DNA from: Solirubrobacterales bacterium
GTDB lineage: Bacteria; Actinomycetota; Thermoleophilia; Solirubrobacterales; Solirubrobacteraceae
Direction of reading: 5' to 3'
DNA: 37,866 bases
Assembly: GCA_019244395.1 (NCBI GenBank)
Contig: JAFASQ010000499.1
Span: 1 to 37,866, forward strand
Below the pieces are notes generated by a model that was not told where the DNA came from, did not search any database, and was given only the letters and a program-made list of their open reading frames with translations. Shown piece after piece: positions 2-7,711 of the stretch. The position numbers and the translations under genes were made by a program. Each line of letters starts with the position of its first letter. Positions within the stretch are counted from its first letter, which is position 1.

Positions 2-751
2 GTCGCCACCGGCAAGCCGCCCGTGCTGATGCTCGCCGACGTCTCCGTGCAGGCCGACGTCCGGCGGGTGGCCGACGAGGTCCGCCGCCGCTACGACCAC
101 GTCGACATCCTGATCAACAACGCGGGCAGCGCCTTCAATCGCCGCGAGCAGTCGGCGGATGGGATCGAGCTAACGTGGGCGACCAACCACATCGCGCCCT
201 TCCTTCTCACCGACCTACTGTTGCCGCTGCTCGTCGCCGCGCCGGGGGGACGTGTCGTCACCGTCACCTCGGAGATCTACAGCAGGAAGCTCGACCTGGA
301 GAACCTCCAAGGGGAGCGCAGGTACAGCTACTTCGGCGCCTACCGGGCCTCAAAGCTCGGCAACGTGCTGTTCACGCGCGAGCTGGCCCGCCGGATCGCC
401 GGATCGGGCGTTAGCGCGGTTGCTGTCAGCCCCGGTCCGGCCAGGACGAACTTCGGCGGTGGCGGCCCTGACGGTGTGATGGGCGTGCTGACCAGCCTGA
501 TGAAGCACACGCCGATCTTCAAGCCGGCGGATGAGGCGGCCGAGGGCATCGTGTGGGCGGCCACCACGTCGGAGTTGAACGGGGGCGACGGAGGCCTCTA
601 CATGCGCCGCAAGCAGTTGAAGCTCAAGGGCGCCGCGGCCGATGAGTCGCTGGCCGGCGAGATCTGGATGGTCAGCGAATCCCAAGCGGGGATCGATCCC
701 CAGCGGTCAGCGGTCGCCGGGGTGAGCAAGCGGAGCGGAAACGATGGCTGA
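2..751 (+). CDS. Short-chain dehydrogenase/reductase, 5' end cut off
   Basis: NAD(P)-dependent oxidoreductase of the short-chain dehydrogenase family; the substrate cannot be told. The open frame runs off the left edge, so the N-terminal glycine-rich cofactor loop is missing. Visible motifs are D-V-S followed by the NNAG motif (ILINNAG), a catalytic Ser region (VTVTSEIYS) and the YxxxK pair in YRASKLGN, then the SPGPART loop that usually closes over the nicotinamide ring. The arrangement resembles the retinol dehydrogenase/WWOX-like 'extended classical' SDRs. The stop overlaps the start of the MMPL gene by 8 bases (ATGGCTGA), so the two are probably translated from one mRNA. Family certain, substrate unknown. 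Confidence 0.88.
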   Translation, partial: VATGKPPVLMLADVSVQADVRRVADEVRRRYDHVDILINNAGSAFNRREQSADGIELTWATNHIAPFLLTDLLLPLLVAAPGGRVVTVTSEIYSRKLDLENLQGERRYSYFGAYRASKLGNVLFTRELARRIAGSGVSAVAVSPGPARTNFGGGGPDGVMGVLTSLMKHTPIFKPADEAAEGIVWAATTSELNGGDGGLYMRRKQLKLKGAAADESLAGEIWMVSESQAGIDPQRSAVAGVSKRSGNDG

Positions 752-2969
752 CTCGCCGGCGGCAACGAACTCACGGTCGGGTCTTGTCGTGCGGCTGTCC
801 GGCTGGGTCCGTGCCCATCGCAAGCTGGTCCTGATCGGTTGGGTCGCGGTGCTGATCGCGTCGATGGGCGCCGCCAACGCGGCGAGTAACCAGTTCGTCA
901 ACAACGTGTCGCTGTCCGGCACCGACTCCCAGCGGGCCGCCGACCTGCTGGGGCGTGAGTTTCCCGCTCAGGCGGGCGACATCGACCAGATCGTCCTGCG
1001 CGCCCGCGGGGGCCGCCTCGCCGATCCGGCGATCCGGGGCCGGGTCGGAGGCGTGCTGGCCTCGGTGGCCCACCTGCCGCACGTGACCGGCGTGATCAGC
1101 CCGTTCAGCTCGGCCGGCTCCCATGCTGTCTCGGCGGACGGCCGGATCGGGTTCGCCACCGTCGCCTTCGACGAGCGCGCCGATCTGCTGCCCAAGGATG
1201 CGGTCAAGAAGGTGATCAGCGTCGCCCGGGCGGGGCAGACCGCGATGCTCCAGGTCGAGCTCGGCGGTCGCGCCATCGAGCAGGCGACACCTCCGTCGCT
1301 GGGTGCGGCCACGGCGATCGGGCTGGTGGCGGCGATCGTCGTGCTGCTGATCACTTTCGGTTCGGCACTCGCGGCCGGGCTGCCGATCATCACCGCGCTG
1401 CTCGGGCTGGGAACCGGACTGGGGCTGATCGGGCTCGGTTCGCATCTGCTCGACACGCCCGATTTCTCGACCCAGCTGGCGGCGCTGCTCGGCCTCGGGG
1501 TGGGGATCGACTACGCGCTGTTCGTGGTCACCCGCTTCCGGGAGAGCTACGCCGAGACCCGCGACGTGGAACGGTCGATCACGGTGGCCATGGACACGGC
1601 CGGGCGGGCGGTGCTGGTCGCCGGGATCACGGTGATCATCGCGCTGCTCGGGCTGCTCACGATTGGAATCACGCTGCTCGACGCGGCCGCCCTCGCCGTC
1701 GCCACCACTGTGGCGCTGGTGCTGACCGCGGCGCTGACCGTGATGCCGGCGCTGCTCTCGCGGTTCGGCGAGCGGATCGGACAGCACGCCAGCCGGCGCC
1801 GGTCGGCCCGCCGGCAAACTCCGTTCTGGCCGCGCTGGGCGGCGGTGGTCGCCCGCCGTCCCTGGCAGTCCCTGGTCGCGGGCCTCGCGATCATGCTGGT
1901 GCTCTGCGTGCCGGCGACGACGCTCAGGCTCGGGCAGAGCGACGCGGGCAACGACCCCACCTCGCACACCAGCCGTCGGGCCTACGACCTGTTGGCGCAA
2001 GGCTTTGGGACGGGCTTCAATGGCCCGCTCCAGGTGGTGGCCCAGCTGCCGCGGTCCCACGACCGCGCGGCGTCCGGCGCGATCTCCGGAGCGCTGCGCT
2101 CGACGCCCGGCATCGCGGCAGCGTCGGCGCCCATCCTCAGCCCGGGGGGAGGGACCGTCGTGTTCCAGGCGTTCCCCGCAACCTCGCCGGAGTCGCAGGC
2201 GACGACCGACCTGGTCAACCGGCTGCGCGGTCACCGGTTGCCGGCGGTGGCGCGCTCCACCGGGGCACGCATCTTCGTCGGCGGCTCGACCGCGGTCGGC
2301 ATCGATTTCGCGCACGTGCTCGGCAACAAGCTCGCGCTGTTCATCGCCGCGGTGATCGTGCTCGCCGCGCTGCTCCTCGTCGTCGTGTTCCGCTCGTTGG
2401 TCATCCCCGTCCAGGCGGCGGTGATGAACCTGCTGTCGGTCGGCGCGTCGCTCGGAGTGACCGTGGCCGTGTTCCAGAAGGGTTGGCTCGGGAGTCTGTT
2501 CGGCGTCACGCCCGGCCCGATCGAATCGTTCATCCCGGTGATCCTGTTCGCGATCGTGTTTGGGCTCTCGATGGATTACGAGGTGTTCCTGGTGTCGCGT
2601 ATCCACGAAGCGTGGACGCGGCGACGGGATCCGACTGCCGCGCTTGTCGATGGCGTGGGCTCGACCGGGCGCGTGGTCACCGCGGCGGCGACGATCATGG
2701 TCTGCGTATTCATCTCATTCGTGCTGGGCGAGGACCGGATCGTGAAGATGTTCGGCCTCGGACTCGCCAGCGCTGTGTTCCTCGATGCGTTCGTGGTGCG
2801 GAGCCTGCTGCTACCGGCGGTGCTGACGCTGTCCGGCGAGCGCACCTGGAAGCTGCCGCGCGGACTCGAGCGCCGGCTGCCTCGAATCGCGCTCGAGGCA
2901 CCCGGCGAAGAGCAGCCGCGTCACGACCGCGGGCGCCACGTCGGTGGCCTGGCCGAAGAAGCCGCGTGA
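744..2969 (+). CDS. MMPL/RND-family membrane transporter
   Basis: 741-residue inner-membrane exporter of the MMPL (RND superfamily) type, which in actinobacteria moves lipids or other hydrophobic compounds using the proton gradient. It has the expected two-fold design: one helix near residues 28-48, a periplasmic loop, then a cluster of five helices, repeated in the second half. Each half carries the signature helix: GLGVGIDYALFVVTRFRE in the first and FGLSMDYEVFLVSRIHE in the second, with the Asp-Tyr pair thought to relay protons. Length is typical of the short single-gene MMPL proteins. It overlaps the SDR gene upstream by 8 bases and is followed almost directly by a flippase-like gene, suggesting a lipid or envelope transport unit; cargo unknown. 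Confidence 0.93.
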   Translation: MADSPAATNSRSGLVVRLSGWVRAHRKLVLIGWVAVLIASMGAANAASNQFVNNVSLSGTDSQRAADLLGREFPAQAGDIDQIVLRARGGRLADPAIRGRVGGVLASVAHLPHVTGVISPFSSAGSHAVSADGRIGFATVAFDERADLLPKDAVKKVISVARAGQTAMLQVELGGRAIEQATPPSLGAATAIGLVAAIVVLLITFGSALAAGLPIITALLGLGTGLGLIGLGSHLLDTPDFSTQLAALLGLGVGIDYALFVVTRFRESYAETRDVERSITVAMDTAGRAVLVAGITVIIALLGLLTIGITLLDAAALAVATTVALVLTAALTVMPALLSRFGERIGQHASRRRSARRQTPFWPRWAAVVARRPWQSLVAGLAIMLVLCVPATTLRLGQSDAGNDPTSHTSRRAYDLLAQGFGTGFNGPLQVVAQLPRSHDRAASGAISGALRSTPGIAAASAPILSPGGGTVVFQAFPATSPESQATTDLVNRLRGHRLPAVARSTGARIFVGGSTAVGIDFAHVLGNKLALFIAAVIVLAALLLVVVFRSLVIPVQAAVMNLLSVGASLGVTVAVFQKGWLGSLFGVTPGPIESFIPVILFAIVFGLSMDYEVFLVSRIHEAWTRRRDPTAALVDGVGSTGRVVTAAATIMVCVFISFVLGEDRIVKMFGLGLASAVFLDAFVVRSLLLPAVLTLSGERTWKLPRGLERRLPRIALEAPGEEQPRHDRGRHVGGLAEEAA

Positions 2970-2973
2970 GAAC

Positions 2974-4041
2974 GTGTTGAAGCGACGGCTCGTCTCCATT
3001 GCCGCGCTGCTCGTCGCGGGTGGGACGGCTCTGCTCGCCGTCCCGGATCTGCGCCGCGCCGCCGAGGAGGCGAGCTCGATCAACGTGCTGTGGCTCATCG
3101 GGGCCGGAGCGCTCGAGCTGGCCTCGTGCATCAGCTTCCTCGCCATCTTCCGGCGGTTCTTCGAGGAGCTGCCGATGTCCGAGGCGCGTCGACTGGCCTG
3201 GATCGAGATGGGCTCGGGCGCCGTGCTTCCGGGCGGCGGCGTCGGGTCGCTGGCGGCGGGTGGAATGCTGCTCCGCCGGGGCGGGATGTCGACGCAGAGC
3301 ATCGTGCAGCGCTCCAGCGGCCTGTTCTTTCTGACCAGCGGGACGAACGTGCTCGCGCTGGAAGGAGCCGCCGTCGCGCTTGGCCTGGGGATCGGCTCGG
3401 GCCCGCACGGGGCTGCCTTGGTCGCGATCCCCGCGACAGTCGGACTCGCGGGTGCCGCGATCGTCCTGGCCCTTGCGCGTCCGCGATGGCACCGCAACGG
3501 CCACCGGCGCGCGCTTAGCGCGGTCGTTGACGGCGTCCGGCAAGCCGAGCGTGAGCTGATCCGGCCCCACTGGCGACTGCTCGGCGCCCTCGGGTACCTC
3601 GGCTTCGACATCGCGGTACTCGGCGTCGTCTGCGCCGGGGTGGGTCACCCGATCGGCGCGCCTGCCCTGGTGCTGGCCTACGTCATCGGCTACGCGGCGA
3701 ACACGCTGCCGGTGCCGGGCGGGATCGGAGTGCTGGAGGGCGGGCTGGTCGGCGCGCTCGTCCTCTACGGCGCGCCGGTGATGCCGGCCACGGCGGCGGT
3801 CCTTCTCTACCACACAATCGCGTTCTGGATCCCCAGCCTGGGCGGAGCGGTCGCCTACGGGATGACCGCGACGGCCCGACGCGGGGCGCGTTCACGATCA
3901 GTTCGTGTTCTTGAGCGACCGTTCCGCTACCGTGGTCGGCGTGGCCAGACCCGCCAATTCGAGCTCGAGGAGGTCCTCGAGCGATCGATGCGGGCGTCTG
4001 GGAGCGTGGCCATCACGAGAGGTCGGTCGACGACCTCGTGA
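2974..4041 (+). CDS. YbhN/LPG-synthase transmembrane-domain (flippase-like) protein
   Basis: Multi-spanning membrane protein with the lysylphosphatidylglycerol-synthase transmembrane domain (PF03706, YbhN/AglD type) but no catalytic synthase domain. Hydrophobic helices fill residues ~5 to 310; recognisable family segments are GSGAVLPGGGVGSLAAGG and the region YAANTLPVPGGIGVLEGGLV. The frame is open from a GTG at 2944, inside the MMPL gene; I prefer GTG 2974 (or TTG 2977), just after the MMPL stop, but no clear ribosome site decides it. The last ~33 residues, from about 3941 on, are out of character: the DNA there is the wreck of a TetR gene, so the protein probably gained a foreign C-terminal tail by read-through. 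Likely an envelope-lipid carrier acting with the MMPL protein (inference). Confidence 0.8.
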   Translation: MLKRRLVSIAALLVAGGTALLAVPDLRRAAEEASSINVLWLIGAGALELASCISFLAIFRRFFEELPMSEARRLAWIEMGSGAVLPGGGVGSLAAGGMLLRRGGMSTQSIVQRSSGLFFLTSGTNVLALEGAAVALGLGIGSGPHGAALVAIPATVGLAGAAIVLALARPRWHRNGHRRALSAVVDGVRQAERELIRPHWRLLGALGYLGFDIAVLGVVCAGVGHPIGAPALVLAYVIGYAANTLPVPGGIGVLEGGLVGALVLYGAPVMPATAAVLLYHTIAFWIPSLGGAVAYGMTATARRGARSRSVRVLERPFRYRGRRGQTRQFELEEVLERSMRASGSVAITRGRSTTS

Positions 4042-4254
4042 GCGCCACCGGGCTCCGCCCCGGGAGCCTCTAGAACGTCTGCCCGAGCTGTGCGCGTACT
4101 TCGACGGTCTCCTCGACGACCTGACCCGGCCGGAGGAGGGATGGGGTGCCAGATGGTGAACTCGGGATGGAGCAAGACCAATCCGGGCCGCATGGTGCTC
4201 GAGATGATCGTCCGCGCGGCGTTCGCCGAGCTGAGCCGACCTCAGGAGGCATGA
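3941..4254 (+). pseudogene. Remnant of a TetR-family regulator gene
   Basis: Pieces of one TetR regulator can be read in order, each in a different frame. First GTG-GCC-AGA-CCC (VARP), then after a one-base slip RQFELEEVLERSMRA, then from 3999 after another slip WERGHHERSVDDLVSATGL and RPGSL, the helix-turn-helix, ended by TAG at 4071-4073 where Tyr is expected. The middle of the gene is missing. The C-terminal part resumes with LPELCAYFDGLLDDLTRPEE, shifts again near 4140-4148, and reads GCQMVNSG and on to TGA 4252-4254. The 'YFDxLLDDL...GCxxVN' pattern is typical of the TetR_C_13-like ligand domain. At least three frame changes, a stop and an internal deletion argue for real decay and not sequencing error. 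The final TGA lies just before the next gene's start, so the remnant was once coupled to it. Confidence 0.72.
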
Positions 4255-4255
4255 G

Positions 4256-4669
4256 TTGTCGACCCCGATACCGCCCGACGTCCGCGAACTGCTCGAGGCG
4301 CCCAACTACGTTCATCTCTCCACGCTGCGCGCCGACGGCTCGCCGCGCAATTGGGTGGTGTGGGTCGGACTGGAGGGCGAGCACATCCTGATCTGCACCT
4401 CCGACGCGATCTGGAAGGCCAAGGACATGCAGCGTGATCCGCGCGTGGGGCTGTCGGTCACCGACCTCGAAAACCCCTACCGGATGGCGGCGATTCAGGG
4501 CCGGGTCGTGGAGGTCCGTCCAGACGAGGGCTGCCGCTACATGGATCCGATCTCGTACAAGTACACGGGAGCACCGTTTCCCAGCCGCGGTCCGGACCGG
4601 GTGTGCTTCGTGATCGCCGTCGAGAAGGCGGCCCAGCGGACCCTGCGCTTCACGCACAGCCCCGCCTGA
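4256..4669 (+). CDS. PPOX-class (F420/FMN split-barrel) protein
   Basis: 137-residue split-barrel flavin- or F420-binding protein of the pyridoxamine 5'-phosphate oxidase superfamily, closest in pattern to the actinobacterial 'PPOX class F420-dependent' group. The opening (PPDVRELLEAPNYVHLST, LRADGSPRNWVVWVG) and the Lys-containing strand IWKAKDMQRDPRVGLSVTD are the usual cofactor-binding stretches. Start is TTG at 4256, with GGAGG at 4244-4248 seven bases upstream; an ATG at 4251 is in another frame and opens nothing. It directly follows the TetR remnant, whose TGA ends at 4254, and converges with the intact TetR gene. Probably a cytosolic oxidoreductase acting on an unknown small molecule formerly under control of the lost regulator. 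Confidence 0.85.
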   Translation: MSTPIPPDVRELLEAPNYVHLSTLRADGSPRNWVVWVGLEGEHILICTSDAIWKAKDMQRDPRVGLSVTDLENPYRMAAIQGRVVEVRPDEGCRYMDPISYKYTGAPFPSRGPDRVCFVIAVEKAAQRTLRFTHSPA

Positions 4670-4692: not shown

Positions 4693-5412
4693 TCAGCGGC
4701 GAGGTTTCTTACGAGGTCGAGCCGCACGAGTCTCCGCCGACCGGACGGGTGCTCGTGTGCTGCTCCGTGCCGCGCGGGGGCGTGGCGCTCGATCTGTAGG
4801 GTCCGCAACCGTCCCGCCCGACCGCAGTTGGGCGATGGCACCATCGAGCGCGATGCGCAGCTGACCTGCATCGCGCGAGGTCTTCGAGAGAAGCAAGCCG
4901 CCCTGGATGGCCGAAAGGGTGATCGTGGTCAGGGCGTCGAGGTCGGCGCCGGTGGAAATCAGCCCGTTGTCCCGCAGCCGCAGCAATGCCCCGCGGATCG
5001 CGTCGCTCCAGGCCTGGAAGGCCTCGCTGAGGCTGGTGCGGAGTCGCTCGTCGGTGTCAGAGAGCGCGGCCGCCAGGGTGCCGATCGGGCATCCGCCGTG
5101 GGCGCCCTGATCCTCGACGATCGCCACCATGGTCTGGGCCCAGCGCTCCAGGTCGTCCCAGTCGCTCACGGAGGCGAGGGCGTGGGCCTGCAAGCCGAGC
5201 ACGGTGGCGCACTGGTAGTCGACGACCGCCTGGACCAGACCGTGCTTGTCGCCAAAGTAGTGATAGAGCTGGCTTTTGCTGGCACCGGTGGCGGCGATCA
5301 CGTCGTCGAGACTGGTCGCGGATGCCCCCCGCTCGCCGACCAGCTCGGCCGCCGCGCGGACGATGCGCTCCCTGGTGGCGCGGCCCTGCTTGGTGGCCGG
5401 GATAGAGCTCAT
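4693..5412 (-). CDS. TetR/AcrR-family transcriptional regulator
   Basis: 239-residue one-component repressor. Residues 11-58 form the DNA-binding domain: RERIVRAAAELVGERG followed by the helix-turn-helix SATSLDDVIAATGASKSQLY and HYFGDKHGL. The ligand domain carries GGCPIGTLAAALSD near residue 106, typical of the LmrA/YxaF-like branch that senses flavonoids, antibiotics or other aromatics. The C-terminal ~35 residues are Arg/Pro-rich, probably disordered. The frame stays open to 5595, but ATG 5412 gives the normal TetR N-terminus and is placed 7 bases after a -10 box (TACGAT), so the mRNA is probably leaderless. Divergent from the response-regulator gene; the space between holds two near-identical palindromes that are its likely operators, and a third lies at 6932. 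Ligand unknown. Confidence 0.93.
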   Translation of the reverse strand: MSSIPATKQGRATRERIVRAAAELVGERGASATSLDDVIAATGASKSQLYHYFGDKHGLVQAVVDYQCATVLGLQAHALASVSDWDDLERWAQTMVAIVEDQGAHGGCPIGTLAAALSDTDERLRTSLSEAFQAWSDAIRGALLRLRDNGLISTGADLDALTTITLSAIQGGLLLSKTSRDAGQLRIALDGAIAQLRSGGTVADPTDRAPRPRAARSSTRAPVRSAETRAARPRKKPRR

Positions 5413-5419
5413 CGCGTCG

Positions 5420-5449
5420 ATCGTAGCAAGATTGGACTTGACAGTCCAA
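5420..5449 (-). promoter_or_regulatory. Promoter of the tetR-type gene
   Basis: On the minus strand TTGGAC (complement of 5444-5449) is followed after 18 bases by TACGAT (complement of 5420-5425), then 7 bases to the ATG at 5412. This would start the transcript at or next to the ATG. The -35 box lies inside operator O1, so bound repressor would block its own gene. Confidence 0.55.
5432..5449. promoter_or_regulatory. TetR operator O1
   Basis: Perfect inverted repeat TTGGACT-TGAC-AGTCCAA: 7-bp arms, 4-bp spacer, 18 bp in all, as expected for a TetR dimer site. It covers the -35 boxes of both divergent promoters. Confidence 0.75.
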
Positions 5450-5466
5450 CGAGTGTCCCGTAAGGT
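5438..5466 (+). promoter_or_regulatory. Promoter of the response-regulator gene
   Basis: A perfect consensus -35 box TTGACA (5438-5443) is followed after exactly 17 bases by TAAGGT (5461-5466). The predicted start is near 5473, inside operator O2, leaving a ~44-base leader with a good ribosome site. The same -10 hexamer, TAAGGT, recurs in the promoter at 6956. Confidence 0.7.
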
Positions 5467-5471
5467 CCAGT

Positions 5472-5489
5472 TTGGACCGGTTGGTCCAA
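5472..5489. promoter_or_regulatory. TetR operator O2
   Basis: Perfect inverted repeat TTGGACC-GGTT-GGTCCAA with the same 7-4-7 design as O1 and centred 40 bp from it. It covers the expected transcription start of the response-regulator gene. An overlapping shorter palindrome, GGTCCA-GTT-TGGACC, begins at 5464. Confidence 0.72.
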
Positions 5490-5516
5490 GATGCCGAGAG
5501 AGGAAAAGGAGACGCG

Positions 5517-6245
5517 ATGCAGACCATGACCGCCGCGCTGGACGCGCCGCCCGCGGGTCGCCGAGGTTCGGTGCTCGTGGTGGACGACGAGCCAACTGTC
5601 TCCGAGGTGCTATCGCGCTACCTCGAGCGCGCCGGGTACGCCACCGAGGTCGTCTCGGACGGCGCGGTGGCGGTCGAGGCGGCCGCGCTGAGCGCCCCGG
5701 ACCTGGTCGTACTAGATGCGAAGCTGCCGCGGCTCGACGGACTCGAGGTGATGCGCCGGATGCGCGCGGCCGACGGCTCCCGCCCGGCCGTGATCCTGGT
5801 CAGCGGCAAGGCGGCGGAGTCGGACAGGATCCTCGGGCTGCAGCTGGGGGCCGACGATTACGTGGCCAAGCCGTTCTCGCCGGCCGAGCTGGTCGCGCGG
5901 GTCGACGCGGTCATGCGTCGGGTGGACCACGCCTCGACCCCGGAAGGGCCGCTGGTCACGGGGGATCTGGAGCTCGACCCGTCCGCTCGGCGGGTGCATG
6001 TAAGGGGCGTCGAGGTGCGGCTGACCCAGCGGGAGTTCGACCTGCTGCTGTTCCTGGTCCGCCATCCCCGCCAAGTCTTCACCCGCGACGATTTGATGCG
6101 CGCGATCTGGCGCTACACGTTCTACACCGACAACTCCACGGTAACCGTCCATATCCGCCGGCTGCGCGCCAAGATCGAGGAGGATCCCGCCAACCCGCGC
6201 CACCTCCAGACGGCGTGGGGGGTGGGGTACCGCTTCGAGCCGTAG
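5517..6245 (+). CDS. OmpR/PhoB-type response regulator (orphan)
   Basis: 242-residue two-component response regulator. The receiver domain spans about 17-135: acidic pocket VVDDEP (Asp23, Asp24), phospho-acceptor Asp67 in VVLDAKLP, Ser96 in place of the switch Ser/Thr and Lys118 in AKPFSP. The C-terminal winged helix (about 145-242) has LTQREFDLLLFLVRHP and the recognition helix STVTVHIRRLRAKIE, ending in the usual GVGYRF. Start is ATG 5517 with GGAG at 5508-5511; an open frame from 5472 would start inside the operator. No histidine kinase lies in the window, so its partner is elsewhere or it is kinase-independent. Two TetR palindromes overlap its promoter, an unusual case of a response regulator under a TetR repressor. 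Confidence 0.94.
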   Translation: MQTMTAALDAPPAGRRGSVLVVDDEPTVSEVLSRYLERAGYATEVVSDGAVAVEAAALSAPDLVVLDAKLPRLDGLEVMRRMRAADGSRPAVILVSGKAAESDRILGLQLGADDYVAKPFSPAELVARVDAVMRRVDHASTPEGPLVTGDLELDPSARRVHVRGVEVRLTQREFDLLLFLVRHPRQVFTRDDLMRAIWRYTFYTDNSTVTVHIRRLRAKIEEDPANPRHLQTAWGVGYRFEP

Positions 6246-6385
6246 CCGGCCGCTCCGGTCGCGCCCTGGCTCACCGGTTCGCCGCAGCGGAGGCCACTTG
6301 CGGACCCGGAGCCGACGACGTGGACGAGGAGACCCCCAGCCTGCTCGAGGCGGCCGGCAAGGGCTCCCGAGCTCCCGGCGCGGCG

Positions 6386-6910
6386 CTACGCGCGCCGCAG
6401 CCTGAACTCGAGCTCGTCCTGCTCGCTTGACTCGGTCCGGGCGAAGCCGAGCCTGCGAAGCACGCCAAGCGAAGGCGTCAGGTGCTCGAGAGTATGAGCG
6501 ACGATCGTGTTAGCTCCCCGCGCCCAGGCCTCCTCGATCAGGGCGCGAGACGCCTCGGTGGCGAGGCCGCGGCGCTGCCAGGACGGCACGACTGAGTAGC
6601 CGATCTCGACCACGCCGTCGTTCGGCGGCCCCTTGTAGCCCACCGACCCGACGAGCGTGGCGGGCTCGCTCTCGGTCATCAGCGTGTAGTACAGCCACCA
6701 CCCGGCCGCGGCGGGGTCCGCCAGTTGCCCTCGCCAGAATACGAGCGTGTCGCGGTCGTGGTGCTCGGGCGGCCAGTCGGAGGGGAGCGCGGCGCCGAGG
6801 ACGAGTCCCAACCGAGGAAAACCCTCGAGCTCGGCCTCGATCACCGCGGGGGTGGCTGGAACCAGTCGCAGCCGCGGCGTGGTCAGTACGCGCTCATAGT
6901 CGACGCTCAT
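6386..6910 (-). CDS. GNAT-family N-acetyltransferase (RimJ/RimL-like)
   Basis: 174-residue acetyl-CoA-dependent N-acetyltransferase, closest in pattern to the RimJ/RimL group (opening VLTTPRLRLVPATP). The acetyl-CoA loop is VVPSWQRRGLATEASRALIE (motif A, Q/RxxGxA) and the closing GVLRRLGFARTE is the usual motif B. Two in-frame ATGs compete: 6922 lies in the -10 box, while 6910 sits 10 bases after it, so 6910 is preferred and the mRNA would have almost no leader. Its promoter contains operator O3 and is divergent from the DUF427 gene. Substrate unknown; could modify an antibiotic, a peptide N-terminus or a metabolite. Confidence 0.88.
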   Translation of the reverse strand: MSVDYERVLTTPRLRLVPATPAVIEAELEGFPRLGLVLGAALPSDWPPEHHDRDTLVFWRGQLADPAAAGWWLYYTLMTESEPATLVGSVGYKGPPNDGVVEIGYSVVPSWQRRGLATEASRALIEEAWARGANTIVAHTLEHLTPSLGVLRRLGFARTESSEQDELEFRLRRA

Positions 6911-6920
6911 CGTGAGCGGC

Positions 6921-6949
6921 ATGATACACCACTGGACCATTTAGTCCAA
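6921..6949 (-). promoter_or_regulatory. Promoter of the GNAT gene
   Basis: Minus-strand TTGGAC (complement of 6944-6949), 17-base spacer, TATCAT (complement of 6921-6926). The -35 half is part of operator O3. The predicted start lies at about 6914, only a few bases before ATG 6910. Confidence 0.6.
6932..6949. promoter_or_regulatory. TetR operator O3
   Basis: CTGGACC-ATTT-AGTCCAA: the same 7-4-7 architecture as O1 and O2 with the arms matching the shared pattern YTGGACY/RGTCCAA. It overlaps both divergent promoters of this intergenic space, so one repressor dimer could silence the GNAT and DUF427 genes together. Confidence 0.68.
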
Positions 6950-6961
6950 ACGTGATAAGGT
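6933..6961 (+). promoter_or_regulatory. Promoter of the DUF427 gene
   Basis: TGGACC (6933-6938), 17-base spacer, TAAGGT (6956-6961). The -10 is identical to that of the response-regulator promoter. The -35 is part of operator O3. Confidence 0.5.
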
Positions 6962-7003
6962 TGCGAAAGAGCACCACCGCAACTGAGAAACGGAGCCGCA
7001 CCC

Positions 7004-7711
7004 ATGGCCGCACTGCACCCCAGCCCCCCGTTCGATGAGCTGACCTACTACCCGACCGCACGATGGATCCGGGGCACGCACGCCGGCAACACGGTCGTCG
7101 ATACCCGGCGGGCGCTGCTGGTGTGGGAGCCGGGCAAGATGACGCCGATTTACGCATTTCCCGCGGGCGACGTCAGCCTGCCCGCCGATGATGCGGTGCG
7201 GGGCTTCGACGATCAGGACCTCGCGGATTACGTGACGGTGCCCTGGGATTCGCTCGATCACTGGTACGAGGAGGACGAGGAGGTGTTCGTCCACCCGCGG
7301 GACCCGTTCGTTCGCATCGACGCGCTGAGGAGCTCGCGCCACGTGCGGGTGGAGCGCGAGGGCCGCCGGCTGGCAGAGTCAGACACTCCGGTCCTGCTGT
7401 TCGAGACGGGTCTGCCGACGCGCTACTACCTCCCGGAGGCGGACGTCGACGGATCGCTGCTCGGGGACTCAGAGCTGGAGACCGGCTGCCCATATAAGGG
7501 ATTCGCCTCCTACCGCGACGTGGTCCTCGATGGGCGCCGCTACCCGAACCTGTTCTGGTACTACCAGCATCCGTTCCGCGAGGCATCGGAGGTCAAGGGG
7601 TACCTTGCGCCCTACAACGAGCGGGTAGAGCTGATCGTCGACGGCGAGCTTCAAGAGCGGCCGGCCAGCCCCCTCCGCCGCCGAGCCGAGCAGGCACGGC
7701 GCGCCGCCTGA
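7004..7711 (+). CDS. Tandem DUF427-domain protein
   Basis: 235-residue cytosolic protein built from two copies of the small DUF427 beta fold. Copy 1 (about 20-105) begins WIRGTHAGNTVVDTRRALLV and runs to the acidic DHWYEEDEEVF; copy 2 (about 113-210) begins HVRVEREGRRLAESDTPVLL, has the hallmark TGLPTRYYLPEADV, CPYKGFASY and ends in the typical NLFWYYQHPFREA...GYLAPYNERVELIVDGE. The biochemical role of DUF427 is not known. Start ATG 7004 with GGAG at 6992-6995. Its promoter shares operator O3 with the GNAT gene, placing it in the TetR regulon. The basic Arg/Ala tail is probably disordered. Confidence 0.9.
   Translation: MAALHPSPPFDELTYYPTARWIRGTHAGNTVVDTRRALLVWEPGKMTPIYAFPAGDVSLPADDAVRGFDDQDLADYVTVPWDSLDHWYEEDEEVFVHPRDPFVRIDALRSSRHVRVEREGRRLAESDTPVLLFETGLPTRYYLPEADVDGSLLGDSELETGCPYKGFASYRDVVLDGRRYPNLFWYYQHPFREASEVKGYLAPYNERVELIVDGELQERPASPLRRRAEQARRAA

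What the first reader, a model, noticed from the sequence alone, without database searches (positions are those of the whole stretch)
5412..7004. A TetR repressor with three matching operators linking a response regulator, an acetyltransferase and a DUF427 protein
Three 18-bp inverted repeats of identical 7-4-7 design (YTGGACY-N4-RGTCCAA) occur at 5432, 5472 and 6932, and only in the two divergent intergenic spaces of this island. Each lies on a good promoter: TTGACA-17-TAAGGT for the response regulator, TTGGAC-18-TACGAT for tetR, TTGGAC-17-TATCAT for the GNAT gene and TGGACC-17-TAAGGT for the DUF427 gene. Four genes would thus answer to one ligand. A two-component response regulator without kinase placed under a TetR repressor is uncommon, and it ties the unexplained DUF427 family to an inducible response, perhaps to a toxic aromatic compound.
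Basis: partly seen in the sequence, partly recalled or inferred. Interest (0 to 1): 0.72.

Follow-up and report, generated by a model that had tools for sequence, protein, structure and literature searches.

The report
TetR repressor with three conserved operators
A soil actinobacterium carries a repressor gene whose three DNA binding sites probably switch four neighbouring genes together; the same repressor-site pair recurs in many bacteria, usually next to redox enzymes, so this is a sound but ordinary kind of stress switch with an unusual set of target genes.

Summary
The three palindromes are real. They sit exactly where stated and are the only exact matches in the 5.69-Mb genome. The TetR-operator link is strongly supported by comparison. 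The same palindrome precedes the TetR gene in 44 of 80 named relatives from several phyla (shuffles: mean 0.1, maximum 2), and it tracks the TetR clade. In a genome with the same GNAT-DUF427 genes but no close TetR, the operator is gone and the response regulator (RR) is broken.

- The RR lacks a kinase here, but G017 has a soluble kinase right after it and G009 a full RR-kinase pair beside tetR. The window genome has a related RR-kinase pair elsewhere, without operators.
- The RR-GNAT adjacency is a deletion scar: a redoxin gene fragment lies between them; G023 keeps the operator, lactonase-like and redoxin genes there.
- DUF427 follows an operator by three different arrangements in relatives, so its regulon membership is credible.
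- Nothing supports an aromatic ligand. The repressor belongs to the LmrA/YxaF-NemR group, with a cysteine aligned to NemR Cys106 in every homologue examined, and its usual neighbours are redoxins or dehydrogenases. A reactive electrophile or oxidant is the better guess, untested.

New member of a known kind.

The parts
4693..5412 (-). tetR: TetR_N + LmrA/YxaF-like C-terminal domain; recognition helix S45-K46-S47-Q48, Cys108 in GGCPIG
   Evidence: Pfam, alignment, NemR alignment, model and fold match
5432..5449 (.). operator 1, perfect palindrome; holds the RR -35 (TTGACA 5438-5443, +) and the tetR -35 (TTGGAC 5449-5444, -)
   Evidence: invariant core in five genomes
5472..5489 (.). operator 2, perfect palindrome, just downstream of the RR -10
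   Evidence: arms conserved in five genomes
5420..5425 (-). putative tetR -10 (TACGAT); would start a leaderless tetR mRNA at about 5412
   Evidence: sequence; operator at -35 to -39 from the tetR start in 29 of 45 loci
5461..5466 (+). putative RR -10 (TAAGGT), 17 bp from TTGACA
   Evidence: sequence; its TA is conserved in the alignment
5517..6245 (+). OmpR/PhoB-type response regulator; receiver residues D23 D24 D67 S96 K118 present; no kinase gene follows
   Evidence: Pfam, sequence
6311..6368 (+). remnant of an AhpC/TSA redoxin gene, scar of a deletion between RR and GNAT
   Evidence: 84% over 50 bp to the G023 redoxin gene, E 3e-10; local score 61 against at most 36 in 200 shuffles
6386..6940 (-). 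GNAT acetyltransferase; true start probably ATG at 6922 or 6910, downstream of operator 3
   Evidence: Pfam, ORF list; 6910 would make its mRNA leaderless (inference)
6932..6949 (.). operator 3 (5 of 7 pairs), shared by the GNAT and DUF427 promoters
   Evidence: conserved in G023, decayed in G010 which lacks a close TetR
7004..7711 (+). DUF427 (PF04248) protein, 235 aa, DUF427 domain at residues 114-206
   Evidence: Pfam; solved relative 3djm

Best explanation
The tetR product is an autorepressor that binds, as a dimer, the TTGGACY-N4-RGTCCAA palindromes. Sites 1 and 2 shut the divergent tetR and RR promoters by covering both -35 boxes and the RR start region. Site 3 shuts the divergent GNAT and DUF427 promoters. 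An inducer, most likely a reactive electrophile or oxidant acting at or near Cys108, releases the repressor and all four genes come on together. The locus is a reduced version of a larger regulon that in sister species also holds a lactonase-like beta-propeller protein, an AhpC/TSA redoxin and, in some, a kinase behind the RR. Shown here by sequence: the sites, their restriction to this locus in the genome, their conservation with this TetR clade, their decay where TetR is missing, and the deletion scar. Inferred: binding, repression, co-induction, the inducer class. The confidence given is for the repressor-operator part; for the inducer class it is about 0.45.
For: Exact motif only at these three places in the genome. 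Same palindrome before orthologous tetR genes in G003, G007, G009, G017, G023 and before paralogues in G001, G008, G015, G026. 44 of 80 named homologue loci have a site within 160 bp upstream of tetR and 36 have two or more; shuffles give means of 0.1 and 0. The proximal site lies 35-39 bp from the tetR start in 29 of 45 loci, and the central hexamer TGTCAA, the -35 TTGACA of the opposite promoter, is found in 24 of 99 sites. Helices S[KR]SQ go with TGGAC, SP/SA-SQ with TGGAG and similar, G[KR]SQ with TGTAC (K/R against the last base agrees in 83 of 85 loci). In separately drawn genomes 5 of 6 S[KR]SQ repressors have an exact TGGAC-N6-GTCCA upstream, and none of the others. DUF427 lies beside operator 3 in G023, at the end of an operator-led lactonase-redoxin run in G017, and just behind RR in G003. 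G010 has RR-GNAT-DUF427 but no close TetR; its operator is gone and its RR frame is broken. Redox reading: Cys108 aligned with the NemR cysteine and present in all homologues examined; redoxin or SDR is the usual divergent target.
Against: No binding or expression data exist. The helix-operator agreement rests on only one or two independent switches in the tree, so it shows that motif and clade travel together, not that given residues read given bases. 36 of the 80 homologue loci have no site at 2 mismatches or fewer; many of these have other helices and other palindromes. The conserved cysteine could be structural: YxaF, a flavonoid-sensing relative, lacks it, while AcuR-like 3bru and others have it, so it does not prove thiol sensing. 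The redoxin, the best redox argument, is absent from this genome's locus.
Confidence: 0.8

Rival explanations
1. The repressor and operators work as described, but the inducer is a non-reactive small ligand (an aromatic such as a flavonoid, an acrylate-like acid, or a butenolide) held in the TetR pocket; Cys108 is structural.
For: Closest families by profile and fold include YxaF, AcuR-like proteins and butyrolactone receptors; neighbouring genes include oxidoreductases and an MMPL exporter.
Against: The cysteine is present in every homologue examined, at the NemR Cys106 position, and the commonest targets are a CPYC redoxin or an SDR. No equivalog cut-off of a ligand-type regulator is met.
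Confidence: 0.4
2. TetR controls only its own gene and the RR at sites 1 and 2; site 3 is a leftover and GNAT and DUF427 are not in the regulon.
For: Site 3 is an imperfect palindrome (5 of 7 pairs), and in G023 other genes separate the GNAT-DUF427 pair from the RR and tetR.
Against: The site is a perfect match in G023 (TTGGACTAAATAGTCCAA) and decayed in G010, which has no close TetR. DUF427 is placed behind an operator in other ways in G017 and G003.
Confidence: 0.12
3. Another protein, for instance a second TetR or the RR itself, reads the palindromes.
For: The G023 locus has a second TetR beside the MMPL gene, and the RR gene is close by.
Against: The palindrome stays with this TetR clade in loci without the RR and in several phyla. 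OmpR-type regulators bind direct repeats as a rule (general knowledge). Variant palindromes go with variant TetR helices.
Confidence: 0.05

Closest known systems
NemR (E. coli TetR-family repressor of nemA-gloA)
   Same: Same C-terminal domain group; profile match E 1.8e-17; Cys108 aligns with the NemR redox cysteine; NemR chains among fold matches; autorepression linked to redox genes.
   Different: About 20% identity, different targets, no NemA or GloA beside it; the NemR operator sequence was not found in the papers held, so operators could not be compared.
LmrA / YxaF (QdoR) of B. subtilis
   Same: Pfam TetR_C_13_2 (LmrA/YxaF-like) above cut-off; paired operators in the target promoter, as reported for QdoR (PMC8481877).
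   Different: YxaF has Ile where this clade has Cys; flavonoid response; different targets.
AcuR (acrylate) and ScbR-type regulators
   Same: Weak whole-length profile matches.
   Different: Scores 55.7 of 247 and 55.9 of 150 needed: not members.
AltR of Pantoea ananatis (NemR-like, thiosulfinates)
   Same: TetR repressor with several inverted-repeat operators over its own and stress genes and a conserved sensing cysteine (PMC13178969).
   Different: 8-6-8 operator of other sequence, other target genes, other phylum.
OmpR/PhoB two-component systems (MtrA-like)
   Same: The RR has intact receiver and winged-helix domains.
   Different: No kinase beside it in this genome; it is placed under a TetR repressor.

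Membership tests
TetR family, LmrA/YxaF-like C-terminal domain (PF21993) | TetR_N helix-turn-helix and the TetR_C_13_2 domain above Pfam cut-offs | tested here: met
   49.4 bits (cut-off 24) and 58.9 bits (cut-off 27); model pLDDT 88 matches TetR structures
TetR family, LmrA/YxaF-like C-terminal domain (PF21993) | Palindromic operator in its own divergent promoter | tested here: met
   by sequence only, binding not tested
NemR-type thiol-based repressors | Cysteine at the NemR Cys106 position | tested here: met
   position only, reactivity not tested
NemR-type thiol-based repressors | Released from DNA by thiol-reactive agents | not testable with these tools
   needs a gel shift or reporter assay
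AcuR and ScbR equivalogs | NCBIfam cut-off score | tested here: not met
   55.7 against 247 and 55.9 against 150
Two-component system | RR with intact phospho-acceptor residues | tested here: met
   D23 D24 D67 S96 K118 in the translation
Two-component system | Histidine kinase encoded beside the RR | tested here: not met
   140 bp to GNAT with only a redoxin fragment; nearest related kinase is on contig C46 with its own RR

The most novel reading that the evidence does not exclude
An uncharacterised TetR clade found in several phyla is a thiol-based electrophile sensor with its own operator code (TTGGACY-N4-RGTCCAA), and in one genus of Solirubrobacterales it has captured a response regulator that has lost its kinase and a DUF427 protein, so that repressor release, not phosphorylation, sets the RR's activity through its amount.
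Probability: 0.25. Interest if true: 0.6.

Novelty: new member of a known kind. Interest (0 to 1): 0.42.

Why it matters
It gives a testable operator and target set for a widespread TetR clade for which the literature search here found no described operator, a concrete physiological lead for the unexplained DUF427 family, and a case where a response regulator seems to have passed from kinase control to repressor control.

Tried and rejected
Further operators in the genome: the 1-mismatch sites do not exceed the reversed control. Chance origin of the palindromes: rejected. A kinase remnant between RR and GNAT: none found; the remnant there is redoxin. The C46 lactonase / RR-kinase locus as part of the regulon: no operator between those genes. 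Literature for the operator or for a redoxin-linked LmrA/YxaF regulator: nothing found; papers with DUF427 and TetR gave only chance co-mentions by title. Phylogeny-corrected helix-operator covariation: too few independent switches to test. My first helix search of the separately drawn loci used a pattern that was too narrow and was widened, so that set is not fully blind. Plasmid relatives of the block: none. The original LmrA/YxaF paper is not held, and the NemR operator was not given in the one paper opened.

Full report
OBSERVATION. The three 18-bp palindromes are present at 5432-5449, 5472-5489 and 6932-6949. Sites 1 and 2 are perfect 7-4-7 inverted repeats; site 3 pairs at 5 of 7 positions. 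In the whole genome the exact pattern occurs at these three places only; one-mismatch matches are not more frequent than for the reversed control pattern.

GENES. The genes are tetR (LmrA/YxaF-like C-terminal domain), an OmpR/PhoB-type RR with the receiver residues intact, a GNAT acetyltransferase and a DUF427 protein. Upstream, convergent with tetR, lie an SDR (cut by the contig end), an MMPL transporter, an LPG_synthase_TM-family protein and an F420-type PPOX protein.

CONSERVATION OF THE OPERATOR. Orthologous tetR genes (about 59-85% identical by tblastn) in G003, G007, G009, G017 and G023 have two or three copies of the palindrome in their upstream region, and more distant homologues (about 40-50%) in the same genus often do too. 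Among 80 named homologue loci, mostly Actinomycetota with some Gemmatimonadetes, Acidobacteria, Thiomonas and Hyphomicrobiales, 44 have at least one site at 2 mismatches or fewer within 160 bp of tetR, and 36 have two or more; dinucleotide shuffles give a mean of 0.1 (maximum 2) and 0. The proximal site sits 35-39 bp from the tetR start in 29 of 45 loci, with TAnnnT 16-19 bp further in 22. This is the register expected if TTGGAC is the tetR -35 and the tetR mRNA is leaderless (inference). In 24 of 99 sites the central hexamer is TGTCAA, the -35 TTGACA of the opposite promoter, followed in many by a -10-like hexamer. In five genomes the block TGGACTTGACAGTCCA is invariant.

REPRESSOR AND SITE TRAVEL TOGETHER. 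The half-site changes with the first residues of the recognition helix: S[KR]SQ with TGGAC, SP/SA-SQ with TGGAG, TGGAT or TAGAA, G[KR]SQ with TGTAC (K/R against the last base agrees in 83 of 85 loci). In separately drawn genomes 5 of 6 S[KR]SQ repressors have an exact TGGAC-N6-GTCCA palindrome upstream and none of the others does; the helix pattern was widened after a first look. On a tree built without the helix the trait switched only once or twice, so this is clade association, not proof of base contacts. A natural control is G010: it has RR, GNAT and DUF427 in the same order, no close TetR, no operator between GNAT and DUF427, and an RR whose frame is broken after the receiver domain. G010 is a draft genome of 91% completeness, so absence of TetR is likely but not certain.

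THE REGULON IN SISTER SPECIES. G023: tetR, two operators, RR, a third operator-like site (2 mismatches), lactonase-like gene (read in two overlapping frames), redoxin, GNAT, operator, DUF427. G017: tetR, operators, RR, kinase, operator, lactonase-like gene, redoxin, two small ORFs, DUF427. G007: tetR, operators, RR, operator, lactonase-like gene. G009: lactonase-like gene, operators, tetR, RR, kinase (domain). G003: RR directly followed by DUF427, on a contig that probably joins the tetR contig. DUF427 orthologues at 73% or more occur in five of 28 genomes of the genus (G023's is cut by a contig end); four have this TetR, and in each the gene can be placed behind an operator, though by three arrangements.

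THE ORPHAN RR. In the window only 140 bp separate RR and GNAT. They hold a 58-bp piece of the redoxin gene (84% over 50 bp to G023, E 3e-10; local score 61 against at most 36 in 200 shuffles), and the genome has no close redoxin elsewhere (best 31%). The kinase next to the RR in G017 starts overlapping the RR stop, is about 265 aa and reads as HisKA-HATPase with no evident sensor or membrane part. The window genome's nearest relative of either kinase is on contig C46, in an RR-kinase pair divergent from a lactonase-like gene, without operators; that RR is 63% identical to the window's. Whether that kinase serves the window RR cannot be told from sequence.

LIKELY SIGNAL. The TetR aligns with NemR (profile E 1.8e-17), and its Cys108 falls on the NemR cysteine; I count it as Cys106 after allowing for two extra residues of the crystal construct. 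The cysteine is present in all 19 aligned sequences and all 80 named loci. The predicted structure matches the R. sphaeroides TetR 3bru, YxaF, PA2196 and NemR structures. The commonest divergent targets in the clade are AhpC/TSA redoxins, with a CPYC motif in the three read out, and SDRs. Together these slightly favour reactive electrophiles or oxidants over a stable ligand such as the aromatic compound proposed, at perhaps 0.45 to 0.40 in my judgement. NemR-like AltR works through such a cysteine (PMC13178969), while a TetR whose cysteines are redox-inert is also known (CssR, PMC8176726).

VERDICT. The RR-without-kinase point is derived and local, and the ligand guess is unsupported. This is a new member of a known kind, with an unusual target set and a testable clade-wide operator.

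Noticed in passing
window 2-4669 (+): SDR (cut by the contig end), MMPL transporter, LPG_synthase_TM-family protein and F420-type PPOX gene, convergent with tetR and kept beside it in varying part in G017, G023 and G003; no operator of this TetR lies in front of them in those loci, and in relatives a second TetR (TetR_C_11 type in G017) lies beyond.
   Followed up: partly
L091 7199-10492 (window genome contig C46): Complete RR-kinase pair divergent from a lactonase-like beta-propeller protein, paralogous to the window RR and to the lactonase-like gene of the sister regulons, without operators.
   Followed up: partly
L064 1692-2809 (G023): The lactonase-like gene is read in two overlapping frames, either a frameshift in the gene or an assembly error.
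   Followed up: no
L172 9547-10673 and L173 3763-4780: In another genus of the family an unidentified stretch of about 1 kb beside tetR is flanked by operators on both sides.
   Followed up: no
L079 9456-9473, L071 7104-7121: Variant palindromes (TTGTACC-N4-AGTACAA and TTGGCC type) before TetR homologues with other recognition helices.
   Followed up: partly
window 6910-6940: The longest GNAT ORF (ATG 6940) would start inside operator 3; ATG 6922 or 6910 is more likely, the latter giving a leaderless mRNA.
   Followed up: no
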